NCBI RefSeq assembly: GCF_017308015.1
Contig: NZ_JAFKFW010000038.1
Coordinates: forward strand, 1 to 34,491
DNA: 34,491 bases
Direction: 5' to 3'
Source: Allobosea sp.
Lineage (GTDB): Bacteria > Pseudomonadota > Alphaproteobacteria > Rhizobiales > Beijerinckiaceae
The notes beneath the pieces were generated by a model, which saw only the letters and a program-made list of their open reading frames with translations, made no database searches and was not told the DNA's origin. A program made the translations under genes and the position numbers. The first letter of the stretch is position 1; every line of letters starts with the position of its first letter. Below, piece by piece: positions 27,722 to 34,297 of the stretch.

Positions 27722-28210
27722 TCACCGATAGGGCGCGTCCATCGCGATGTTGCGCGCGATCTCGCGTTCCCAGCGCGCGCCGTTCGCGAGCAGCTTGTCC
27801 TTGTCGTAGAACAGCTCCTCGCGCGTCTCGGTCGCGAACTCGAAATTCGGCCCCTCGACAATGGCATCGACCGGGCAGGCTTCCTGGCAGAAGCCGCAGT
27901 AGATGCACTTGGTCATGTCGATGTCGTAACGGGTGGTGCGGCGCGTGCCGTCGTTGCGGCGCGGGCCGGCCTCGATGGTGATGGCCTGCGCCGGGCAGAT
28001 CGCCTCGCAGAGCTTGCACGCGATGCAGCGCTCCTCGCCGTTCGGATAGCGGCGCAAGGCATGCTCGCCACGGAAACGCGGCGAGAGCTGGCCCTTCTCG
28101 AACGGATAGTTCAGCGTCGCCTTCGGCTTGAAGAAATAGCGCATCGACAGGCCGATGGCCCCGACGAACTCCTTCAGCAGCAGGCCCCTTGCGGCTTGCG
28201 CGAGTGACAT
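27722..28210 (-). CDS. nuoI: NADH-quinone oxidoreductase subunit I
   Basis: Complex I peripheral-arm subunit (162 residues; TYKY) carrying clusters N6a and N6b, the last wires before N2. The two ferredoxin motifs are complete: Cys62, 65, 68, 72 ([12 protein letters not shown]) and Cys102, 105, 108, 112 ([12 protein letters not shown]). The N-terminal amphipathic helix ([19 protein letters not shown]) lies on the membrane. AAGG elements precede the ATG. It starts 20 bases after a small membrane ORF rather than after nuoH, as it would in most species. Confidence 0.97.
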
Positions 28211-28230: not shown

Positions 28231-28467
28231 TCAGCCGAACACCGTCCGGCCGATCACGAAACCCAGGACCGGCATCAAGCCGATCGTCATCACAATCAGC
28301 ACCGCCCGCAAGATGCGGATGCGGCGCTCGTAATCGTCCTTCTCGGCCTGCGTCGTCGAGCGATCCGTGCGCCGGAGCGCCCCGATCACCACGGCCGAGA
28401 TAAGCCGGTACTCCAGCAGGCCCAGCGCGAAGCCGATCACGGCACCGACCAAGCCCGTACCGTTCAT
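28231..28467 (-). CDS. Small two-helix membrane protein between nuoH and nuoI (second)
   Basis: A 78-residue protein I cannot assign to a family. It begins [20 protein letters not shown], giving a first hydrophobic helix (~4-30), then a charged loop with RRTDRSTTQAEKDDYERRIR (~35-54), and a second hydrophobic helix (~55-76, MTIGLMPVLGFVIG). Its ATG overlaps the stop of the preceding small ORF in ATGA, and that ORF overlaps nuoH in the same way, so all three are translationally coupled. The frame is open further upstream but that part overlaps the other ORF and looks like frame-shifted sequence (Arg-rich). Coding is supported by hydrophobic pattern, codon phase and the overlaps. A complex I accessory or assembly role is only suggested by position. 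Confidence 0.7.
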   Translation of the reverse strand: MNGTGLVGAVIGFALGLLEYRLISAVVIGALRRTDRSTTQAEKDDYERRIRILRAVLIVMTIGLMPVLGFVIGRTVFG

Positions 28468-28664
28468 GGCGCCGCCAGCCCGAACCACTGGACCGCCTCG
28501 TACCCGCCGAAGCCGCCGACAACCGCGGCGGCCACCGCTCCTCCAAGCGCCACATCGAGCGCATCGAAGATCCGGCTTCGCCTTGCCCACCAGCAAGCAG
28601 AGCCGAACGAAACCACGCCCGCGATCATCCCGAATCCAACTCGGGAGATCGCAGCCGAACTCAT
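28464..28664 (-). CDS. Small two-helix membrane protein between nuoH and nuoI (first)
   Basis: A 66-residue protein without a family I recognise. The ATG at 28664 overlaps the nuoH stop (ATGA). Two hydrophobic segments: ~6-27 ([19 protein letters not shown]) and ~37-57 ([17 protein letters not shown]), rich in Gly and Ala, joined by a basic [10 protein letters not shown] loop. It ends WFGLAAP. The small residues suggest close helix packing. It is coupled to the next small ORF by another ATGA. It could be an accessory membrane subunit or a pair-forming partner of the 78-residue protein; neither is shown by sequence. Confidence 0.65.
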
Positions 28665-29713
28665 CCCGCGACCGGGCCCCAGCCCGTCAACTGCAGAACC
28701 AGCGCCACGATCACGACGCAGGCCAGCGAGAGCGGCAGGAAGACCTTCCAGCCCAGGCGCATCAACTGGTCGTAGCGGTAGCGCGGCACGAAGGCCTTCA
28801 CCAGCGCGAACATGAAGAACACGAGGCAGACCTTGAGCGCGAACCAGAACACGCCGGGCAGCCAGGTGAAGGGCGGCAACGCGACCGGCGGCGCCCAGCC
28901 ACCGAGGAACAGGATCGTGGTCAGCGAGCACATGGTCATGATCGCCACGTATTCGCCGAGCATGAACAGCAGGTACGGCGTCGAGGAATACTCGACCATG
29001 AAGCCCGCCACGAGCTCGGATTCCGCTTCGGCCAGATCGAAGGGCGGCCGGTTCGTCTCGGCCAGCGCCGAGACGAAGAAGACCACGAACATCGGGAAGA
29101 GCGGGATGAAGTACCAGTTCAGGATCGAGAGCCACGGCACGCCGAGCGCATGGGCGAGGCCGCGGTTCGCCTGAGCCTCGACCACGGCCGAGAGGTTCAG
29201 CGAGCCGACGCAGAGCAGAACCGTGATGATGACGAAGCCGATCGAGACCTCGTAGGACACCATCTGCGCCGCCGAGCGCAGCGCGCTCATGAACGGGTAT
29301 TTCGAATTCGAGGCCCAGCCGGCCATGATGATGCCGTAGACGCCGAGCGAGGAGATCGCGAGGATGTAGAGGATACCGACATTGATGTCGGCGATCGCCC
29401 AGCCTTCCGCCACCGGGATCACCGCCCAGGCGCCGAGCGCCAGCAGGCAGGAGATGAAGGGCGCCAGCAGGAAGATGCCCTTGTTGGCACCCGCCGGAAT
29501 GATCGGCTCCTTGAACGCGAACTTCATCAGGTCCGCGAAACTCTGGAACAGGCCGAAGGGTCCGACCACGTTCGGGCCGCGGCGAAGCTGCACCGCCGCC
29601 CAGATCTTGCGGTCGGCGAGCAGGATATAGGCGATGAAGACCAGCAGGCAGACCAGCAGCAGCAGGCTCTTGCCGAGGATGATCGCGATATCGAGGACGA
29701 GATCCCAGTTCAT
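28661..29713 (-). CDS. nuoH: NADH-quinone oxidoreductase subunit H
   Basis: Complex I membrane subunit (350 residues, eight helices; ND1) that forms the quinone chamber with NuoB and NuoD. Typical segments are [19 protein letters not shown] (~39-57), [28 protein letters not shown] with its conserved glutamates, and the C-terminal [20 protein letters not shown]. It starts 6 bases after nuoG. Its stop overlaps the start of a small membrane ORF. Confidence 0.97.
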
Positions 29714-33103: not shown

Positions 33104-34297
33104 TCACTCTGCCGGCTTGTCGCCAAGCTTCGACTCCGGGCGCCAGCCCGTCGCGAGCTTCTTCGACTGAGCAATCCAGTCGTCACGCAGCGCCCGGCCC
33201 TTGAAGCCGGTCAGTCGCGCATCGACCCAGGCGAGCTCCGCCGGTGTCCATTCGGCGATCTGGTCGTAGTGCCAGATCCCCATCTCATTGAGCATCTTGG
33301 CCAGCTTCGGCCCGACACCCCAGATTAGTTCGAGATCGTCGCCCGTTCCGCCGCGCGCAGCGGTCAGGAGTTCGGGCTTGCTCTCGTCCCTCGCGGTGAC
33401 GTTGTCCGCGGCCGCGGGCTTGGCAGCCTCAGCGACGTCCTTCTTCTCGACCTTGCCCTTGGCAGCCGGCGTGTCGCTCGCCGCGCCCGAGGGCTGGGCC
33501 GGAGCCGAAGGCTGCGGGCGAGCGGCAGCCGCCGTCTCCGTAGCGGGCTTGGCGGCAACGGCGGCCGGGGTGGCCTCGGCCTTCTTGGCCTCGGCTTCGG
33601 CGGCGGCCTTGACAGCGGCGGCTTCGGCAGCGGCCTTGCGCTGCTCGGCGATGCGCTTCTGCCAGCCGCCGGCACCGATCATCGAGCCGTCATAGAGGGC
33701 CTTGTCGGTCAACGTCTGCGGGCCGCCTTCCGGCTCGGAACCGATGCGGCCGTTCTGCGGACCGGGCTTGGTCGGACGGCCGTTGCGGAGATCGTCGAGG
33801 AGCTGGCGGAAATTCGCCGGCGTCAGGTCCTCGTAGTAGTCGACATTGATCTGCGCCATCGGCGCGTTGCAGCAGGCGCCCAGGCATTCGACCTCGAGCC
33901 AGGAGAGCTTGCCGTCGGCGGTCACGGTCGATTGCGGGCCGATCACCTCCTCGCAGACCTTCTTGAGCGCCTCGGCGCCGCGCAGGGCGCAGGGCGTGGT
34001 GCCGCAGAGCTGGACGTAATACTGGCCGACCGGCTGCAGGTTGAACATGGTGTAGAAGGTCGCGACCTCCAGCACCCGCATCGGCGCCATGCCGAGGCGC
34101 TTGGCGACGGTCTCGATCACGGCGCGCGAGACCCAGCCCTCCTGCTCCTGAGCCTTCCACAAAAGCGGAATGACGGCGGAAGCCTGACGGCCTGCCGGAT
34201 ATTTGGCGATCTGCTGGTCGATCCAGTTCTCGTTCGCCGCGGTGAAGGCGAAGGAGGCGGGCTGGACCGGATCGGGCGCGAGACGACGGACGGACAT
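33104..34297 (-). CDS. nuoE: NADH-quinone oxidoreductase subunit E with C-terminal HhH extension
   Basis: 24 kDa subunit of complex I carrying cluster N1a. The thioredoxin-like part (~22-170) has the four ligands Cys98, Cys103, Cys138 and Cys142. The protein is 397 residues, about twice the usual 160-220. The extension has an Ala/Lys/Glu/Pro-rich linker (~213-318) and a helix-hairpin-helix-like domain (~320-385: LELIWGVGPKLAKMLNEMG, then IWHYDQIAEWTPAELAWVD). This fusion is known in several alphaproteobacteria; the task of the extra domain is unknown. The ATG overlaps the nuoD stop by one base. Confidence 0.95.
   Translation of the reverse strand: MSVRRLAPDPVQPASFAFTAANENWIDQQIAKYPAGRQASAVIPLLWKAQEQEGWVSRAVIETVAKRLGMAPMRVLEVATFYTMFNLQPVGQYYVQLCGTTPCALRGAEALKKVCEEVIGPQSTVTADGKLSWLEVECLGACCNAPMAQINVDYYEDLTPANFRQLLDDLRNGRPTKPGPQNGRIGSEPEGGPQTLTDKALYDGSMIGAGGWQKRIAEQRKAAAEAAAVKAAAEAEAKKAEATPAAVAAKPATETAAAARPQPSAPAQPSGAASDTPAAKGKVEKKDVAEAAKPAAADNVTARDESKPELLTAARGGTGDDLELIWGVGPKLAKMLNEMGIWHYDQIAEWTPAELAWVDARLTGFKGRALRDDWIAQSKKLATGWRPESKLGDKPAE

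What the first reader, a model, noticed from the sequence alone, without database searches (positions are those of the whole stretch)
28231..28664. Two tiny coupled membrane proteins inserted between nuoH and nuoI
In most bacteria nuoH is followed directly by nuoI. Here two ORFs of 66 and 78 codons intervene, each with two hydrophobic helices and each starting inside the stop of the gene before it (ATGA at 28661-28664 and 28464-28467). The chain nuoH-ORF1-ORF2 is thus translationally coupled, and nuoI follows 20 bases later. I do not recognise either protein. The position suggests small supernumerary subunits or assembly factors of complex I near the quinone module, or a linked two-component membrane pair. 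Those roles are inference; the gene layout is seen.
Basis: partly seen in the sequence, partly recalled or inferred. Interest (0 to 1): 0.8.

Follow-up and report, generated by a model that had tools for sequence, protein, structure and literature searches.

The report
Small membrane proteins in complex-I operon
Two tiny membrane-protein genes sit between two genes for the respiratory enzyme complex I; the second belongs to an unnamed family found at this same spot in about a third of the related bacteria sampled and is probably an extra part of that enzyme, while the first comes and goes between close relatives.

Summary
ORF2 (78 aa) belongs to a fast-evolving family of two-helix membrane proteins. 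A 42-member profile matched 108 of 297 genomes of the window's order (20 of 52 families). In all 108 the match lies just downstream of nuoH on the same strand (106 by coordinates; 2 by their loci). No small membrane ORF was found between nuoH and nuoI in 40 of 40 intervals read from other alphaproteobacterial orders. ORF2 is under purifying selection (pN/pS 0.40, 9 pairs), with positive charge confined to the loop. No Pfam or NCBIfam family (above cut-off) or PDB relative was found. ORF1 (66 aa) differs: it is in 9 of 60 Bosea genomes, scattered over the tree, twice without ORF2, and not convincingly elsewhere. It may be a far-diverged copy of ORF2; the evidence is weak. Most likely ORF2 is a lineage-specific accessory membrane subunit of complex I beside NuoH, a role like that of cyanobacterial NdhL without detectable homology; an assembly factor is the main rival. 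The function is inferred; no protein was assayed.

The parts
28661..29713 (-). nuoH (complex I membrane subunit at the quinone tunnel), 350 aa
   Evidence: ORF list; genome searches
28464..28664 (-). ORF1, 66 aa, predicted two-helix membrane protein; patchy, seen only in Bosea
28661..28664 (-). ATGA: start of ORF1 overlapping the stop of nuoH
   Evidence: sequence
28231..28467 (-). ORF2, 78 aa, two-helix hairpin with charged loop; member of a nuoH-linked family found in 20 of 52 sampled families of the order
28464..28467 (-). ATGA: start of ORF2 overlapping the stop of ORF1
   Evidence: sequence
27722..28210 (-). nuoI (iron-sulfur subunit), 162 aa, starts 20 bases after the ORF2 stop
   Evidence: ORF list; genome searches

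Best explanation
ORF2 is a lineage-specific accessory (supernumerary) membrane subunit of complex I in the window's order. It is a helical hairpin with both ends on the periplasmic side and a charged loop of about 22 residues on the cytoplasmic side, made together with NuoH and packed against it near the NuoH/NuoI/quinone-entry region, where it would steady that interface or the local lipid and quinone environment. ORF1 is an optional second hairpin in the same slot, probably a far-diverged copy or substitute. Shown: conservation, selection, linkage to nuoH, charge pattern. Predicted: the hairpin and its orientation. Inferred: translational coupling, binding to complex I, the site of binding and the role.
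For: In 108 of 108 genomes with a profile match it lies downstream of nuoH on the same strand (done by script for 106, gap -1 to 334 bases, median 22; two by loci). The matches cover 20 of 52 family codes and 42 of 123 genera. Family distances follow those of nuoI (Mantel r 0.38, 0 of 2000 permutations as high, highest 0.32), which fits descent with the operon. Purifying selection: pN/pS 0.40, Fisher p 2.7e-12. The first start codon of the first small ORF is at offset -3 or 0 from the last base of the nuoH stop in 50 of 57 Bosea genomes that have one. There is more K+R in the loop than in both tails in 42 of 42 members. Precedent: NdhL, predicted to have two TM helices, caps lipids at the plastoquinone-cavity entrance on NdhA (which I take as the NuoH counterpart), and its deletion almost completely abolished NDH cyclic electron flow (PMC7021789, passages read).
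Against: No biochemical data. 189 of 297 order genomes gave no match; some diverged members are missed, but intervals too short for the gene are common (38 of 121 loci, partly the same genomes, have gaps under 200), so complex I works without it. Presence needs at least 19 changes on a nuoI tree of 95 order loci (shuffled mean 29.6). It evolves much faster than the core genes (pN/pS 0.40 against 0.11 and 0.01). Purified Paracoccus denitrificans complex I has no such subunit reported (PMC11522691, passages), but whether that species has the gene was not checked. Fast divergence would suit an assembly factor as well.
Confidence: 0.52

Rival explanations
1. ORF2 is an assembly factor or membrane chaperone that inserts or holds NuoH, or docks NuoI, and leaves the finished enzyme.
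For: Position between nuoH and nuoI, start codons at the nuoH stop, fast divergence and repeated absence suit a transient helper.
Against: No Pfam family matches consistently (scan of 42 members). The complex I assembly factors that I recall are mostly larger (recalled, no call).
Confidence: 0.25
2. ORF2/ORF1 link complex I to another respiratory complex (supercomplex) or to a lipid or quinone pool rather than serving complex I itself.
For: Glycine-rich two-helix hairpins suit helix packing; P. denitrificans complex I is reported in supercomplexes (PMC11522691, passage).
Against: No match lies away from nuoH (108 of 108 genomes). No partner gene was tested.
Confidence: 0.1
3. The small genes have a role unrelated to complex I (a passenger in the operon, for example a stress or toxin-like small membrane protein).
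For: ORF1 is patchy, has lower GC3 (0.73 against 0.88-0.93 in five genes of the operon) and changes state 9 times on the tree for 9 carriers, as a passenger might. Unrelated-looking ORFs sit in this slot in two loci (L063, L077).
Against: For ORF2, every match in 108 genomes is at nuoH and none elsewhere; a passenger should turn up elsewhere.
Confidence: 0.1
4. ORF1 (not ORF2) is no functional gene but a decaying or chance-open insertion at the nuoH/ORF2 junction.
For: It is in 9 of 60 Bosea genomes only; pN/pS is fairly high (0.52 and 0.39 pooled, up to 0.96 in single pairs); GC3 is low.
Against: It is open with a start at the nuoH stop in 9 of 9 carriers; pN is below pS in the pooled pairs (p 1e-7 and 3.5e-8, sets that share sequences); two genomes keep it without ORF2.
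Confidence: 0.2

Closest known systems
NdhL (PF10716) of cyanobacterial and plastid NDH-1
   Same: Small subunit (profile of 76 positions) predicted to have two TM helices, beside NdhA at the quinone cavity (PMC7021789 passages).
   Different: No NdhL match in the window's genome; NdhL is not among the Pfam families that any of 42 members matched at E 0.01. ndhL gene position and NdhL topology were not compared.
Supernumerary subunits of Paracoccus denitrificans complex I (NDUFS4, NDUFS6, NDUFA12, PIMT)
   Same: Extra subunits in an alphaproteobacterial complex I (PMC11522691 and PMC8115037, passages).
   Different: As I recall those are not membrane hairpins; the ORF2 family has no sequence relative in the PDB (best E 0.37).
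TctB (PF07331)
   Same: Weak profile match of ORF2, E 5.8e-4, 20.5 bits; 4 of 42 members match at E 0.01.
   Different: Below the curated cut-off of 29.1 bits and over part of the profile only; I read it as generic helix similarity.

Membership tests
Complex I accessory subunit (functional class) | Gene linked to core complex I genes | tested here: met
   108 of 108 genomes with a match have it downstream of nuoH (106, 2)
Complex I accessory subunit (functional class) | Protein physically present in the purified complex | not testable with these tools
   Needs purification or cryo-EM
Complex I accessory subunit (functional class) | Beyond the core set: absent from this place in other complex I operons | tested here: met
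   0 of 40 intervals read outside the order hold such an ORF
NdhL (PF10716) | Match to the NdhL profile | tested here: not met
   No match in the own genome (among 14 controls it rang in Synechococcus elongatus and Sulfolobus acidocaldarius, one over the cut-off); not among the Pfam hits of 42 members at E 0.01
NdhL (PF10716) | Two-helix membrane protein bound to the NuoH/NdhA subunit | tested here: inconclusive
   Two helices predicted; binding untested
TctB (PF07331) | Score over the curated cut-off | tested here: not met
   20.5 against 29.1 bits
ORF2 family (for ORF1) | Significant profile similarity of ORF1 to the ORF2 family | tested here: inconclusive
   hhalign probability 23%, E 8.9e-4, 28 columns of the first helix only; ORF1 sequences against the ORF2 profile: best E 0.0032, the window's 2.8

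The most novel reading that the evidence does not exclude
The nuoH-nuoI interval in this order is a dedicated slot for order-specific accessory hairpins that line the quinone entry of complex I. The slot is filled, doubled, emptied or refilled with different alleles by recombination between close relatives, as expected if the hairpins tune or guard the quinone tunnel, for instance against natural quinone-site inhibitors from competing soil microbes.
Probability: 0.1. Interest if true: 0.85.

Novelty: new variant of a known kind. Interest (0 to 1): 0.6.

Why it matters
Complex I is among the best-studied enzymes, and how accessory subunits are gained is an open question usually asked of mitochondria. 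Here a probable accessory membrane protein is tied to one spot of the operon across an order, is still being gained, lost, doubled or swapped among close species, and could be deleted and tested in culturable bacteria. If it is a subunit, complex I of many Hyphomicrobiales has an unrecognised component near the quinone site; if an assembly factor, it is a new one.

Tried and rejected
Family filing by profile: Pfam and NCBIfam for both ORFs, Pfam for 42 members (7 families, none matched by more than 4 members), PDB sequences (best E 0.37) and Foldseek on the ORF2 model (best E 2.6, ATP synthase c-subunit hairpins). None gave anything to file it under.

Wider distribution by profile: in 289 genomes of the class 12 matched at E 0.01, the window's own included. 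None of the 11 other loci holds a nuo gene; ten lie in frames of 195 codons or more and one is crossed by three stops, so I read them as chance.

ORF1 outside Bosea: 3 of 297 order genomes matched at E 0.001, one being the window's; the other two are partial matches inside frames of 164 and 653 codons, not followed up and read as chance. In the genus search 18 of 61 matched at E 0.1; of the 12 loci fetched, 7 carry ORF1 at nuoH and 5 have no nuo gene. L220 and L227 were found only by the interval census. The two ORF1 structures searches ended with the poor model, which I did not search for folds.

First counts of intervals had frame or stop errors for some loci; they were redone and only that is used, except for the unrelated ORFs of L063 and L077, seen. 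One ORF in L077 is a wrong-frame artefact and was dropped from the family and from the tree labels.

Literature: searches returned no paper; some searches returned listings, none naming a gene between nuoH and nuoI in title or abstract start; of the listed papers I opened three by term search only. The library lacks most subscription papers, so 'not described' holds only for these searches. I recall that older papers on Rhodobacter and Paracoccus nuo/nqo operons list unidentified reading frames; their texts were not seen.

Full report
WHAT IS THERE. On the minus strand the order is nuoH (29713-28661), ORF1 (28664-28464, 66 aa), ORF2 (28467-28231, 78 aa), 20 bases, nuoI (28210-27722), with ATGA overlaps at both junctions. 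Core gene names come from my reading of the translations. The genome is Bosea-like: most of the 21 named records that returned an ORF2 relative are Bosea; the rest are labelled Hyphomicrobiales/Rhizobiales or Boseaceae bacterium and one Methylobacterium.

ORF2 IS A WIDESPREAD FAMILY. All 21 named loci have ORF2 between nuoH and nuoI. A profile of 20 such sequences (A1) matched 51 of 297 genomes of the order at E 0.01. Of these, 30 were held as loci (L001, the window's own, and L023-L051), and all 30 lie between nuoH and nuoI. I then read 40 further intervals that I picked from order genomes without an A1 match: 14 of 40 hold a small hydrophobic ORF. I also read 30 intervals (the 30 best nuoI matches) of 75 family genomes with nuoI, of 80 searched: 16 of 30 hold one, among them three Bosea. 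Over everything held at that point, 121 loci had nuoI (some genomes twice, e.g. the window as L001 and L092); 83 had a gap of 200 bases or more and 82 gave a hydrophobic ORF, one of which (L077) is an artefact.

A diverse 42-member alignment (A3; lengths 75-89 aa) shows a shared plan: a first helix of the form G-L-I-G-A-x-x-G-L-x-x-G-x-x-D-Y, a charged loop, and a second helix around F-P-x-x-G-Y-x-x-G. Mean column identity is 37%; one glycine is invariant and three are at 90% or more. Over the same 297 genomes A3 matched 108 at E 0.001 (100 of 254 good genomes, 42 of 123 genera), which I count as 20 of 52 family codes. I compared match places with nuoH places by script: 106 of 106 are on the same contig and strand as nuoH and downstream of it, gap -1 to 334 bases, median 22. 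The other two (G158, G038) are loci L045 and L047, where nuoH and nuoI flank the match. No genome has a match elsewhere. In one genome (G113) there are two matches in tandem, and L066 has two different two-helix ORFs; the eight gaps over 100 bases include these and the window, where another small ORF lies between.

IT STOPS AT THE ORDER, AS FAR AS SEEN. From 161 genomes with nuoH in a class sample of 190 I picked 40, all marked 'same class' and so outside the order. The nuoH-nuoI gap is under 200 bases in 40 of 40 and over 120 in 3; in those 3 no hydrophobic ORF of 45 codons or more was found. A3 in 289 class genomes gave 12 matches at E 0.01, the window's and 11 with no nuo gene near. The first-look filter of these searches scored at most about 18-19 candidates a genome, so very diverged members can be missed.

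ORF1 IS DIFFERENT. In 61 genus genomes, 60 with nuoI, the intervals of all 60 were read: ORF2 family alone 48, ORF1 plus ORF2 7, ORF1 alone 2, neither 3. A check by profile gives the same totals: ORF2 family in 55 genomes, ORF1 in 9. On a quick tree of the 3' part of nuoH (14 of 57 inner branches well supported), ORF1 presence needs 9 changes for 9 carriers and ORF2 presence 3; the seven ORF1+ORF2 genomes need 7 changes against a shuffled mean of 6.8, so they are not clustered. The window's ORF1 differs from those of L002, L003 and L008 at pS 0.48-0.55, while nuoH, ORF2 and nuoI in the same pairs differ at pS 0.07-0.18 (another alignment gives 0.48-0.58 for ORF1). Its nearest protein of eight is that of L205 (51%). 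Its GC3 is 0.73 against 0.88-0.93 in five genes of the operon. Together this suggests exchange of ORF1 alleles by recombination, or old alleles with many losses; I cannot tell which. Profile comparison links the first helices of ORF1 and ORF2 only weakly (hhalign probability 23%, E 8.9e-4, 28 columns), and ORF1 sequences score poorly against the ORF2 profile (best E 0.0032; the window's 2.8).

SELECTION. Over 9 pairs of Bosea loci chosen from the tree to be nearly independent, pN/pS is 0.40 for ORF2 (p 2.7e-12), 0.11 for nuoH and 0.01 for nuoI; for ORF1 it is 0.52 (3 pairs, p 1e-7) and 0.39 (2 pairs, p 3.5e-8; the sets share sequences), with single pairs up to 0.96. Median pairwise dN/dS: ORF2 0.41 (231 pairs), ORF1 0.47 (6 pairs), nuoH 0.23, nuoI 0.04. 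So ORF2 is clearly constrained and ORF1 probably, both far less than the core genes. Family distances follow nuoI distances (Mantel r 0.38, 0 of 2000 permutations as high). Presence in 95 order loci (58 with, 37 without; not a random sample) needs 19 changes on a nuoI tree against a shuffled mean of 29.6 and minimum of 23 in 200 shuffles: clustered, but often gained or lost.

STRUCTURE AND TOPOLOGY. AlphaFold2 on A1 gives a two-helix model for ORF2 (pLDDT 87.1, pTM 0.62; the five models range from 62 to 87); ORF1 is modelled poorly (63.1). Lysine and arginine average 5.2 in the loop, 0.00 in the N-tail and 0.12 in the C-tail; the loop also holds 4.2 acidic residues; the loop has more K+R than both tails in 42 of 42 members. 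By the positive-inside rule both ends would face the periplasm and the loop the cytoplasm, the side on which NuoI and the quinone-reducing arm sit. Foldseek against the PDB gave no significant match.

MECHANISM. I commit to an accessory subunit beside NuoH (0.52), with an assembly factor second (0.25). The reasons for the first: linkage to nuoH in every match, start codons at or close to the nuoH stop, distances that follow the operon, and a uniform predicted membrane topology. The closest working parallel is NdhL, which sits on NdhA at the quinone cavity (PMC7021789, passages read); no homology was found. What is missing is any protein evidence.

NOVELTY. No Pfam or NCBIfam model covers it above its cut-off, no solved protein sequence matches, and eight paper searches, of which two returned nothing and one was about NdhL, brought up no description in the listings seen. 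Of the papers cited I read only passages found by terms.

Noticed in passing
L063 and L077, between nuoH and nuoI: Two order loci carry a different ORF in this interval, 147 and 157 codons, sharing a CHCxDCRRATGAP stretch after a CxCGA start; I recall such cysteine patterns from GFA/CENP-V-type proteins (recalled, no search run).
   Followed up: no
L066 527-990; G113:C329:8852-9355: Two small membrane ORFs in tandem between nuoH and nuoI in two other families of the order, so doubling of this slot seems to have happened more than once.
   Followed up: partly
window 33104-34297: The nuoE-like ORF is 397 aa, with an alanine-rich linker and a C-terminal part that looks to me like a helix-hairpin-helix unit; longer than the nuoE that I recall from other bacteria.
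   Followed up: no
L137, L139, L210, L218, L222: Five Bosea genomes that lack ORF2 fall near one another on the nuoH tree, in a poorly resolved part; two keep ORF1 alone and three have neither, with a 37-base gap.
   Followed up: partly
G696:C43:729-1121 and G708:C2:208577-208969: A second, distant nuoI-like match (38-40% identity) in two Bosea genomes, possibly a second complex I or a related enzyme.
   Followed up: no
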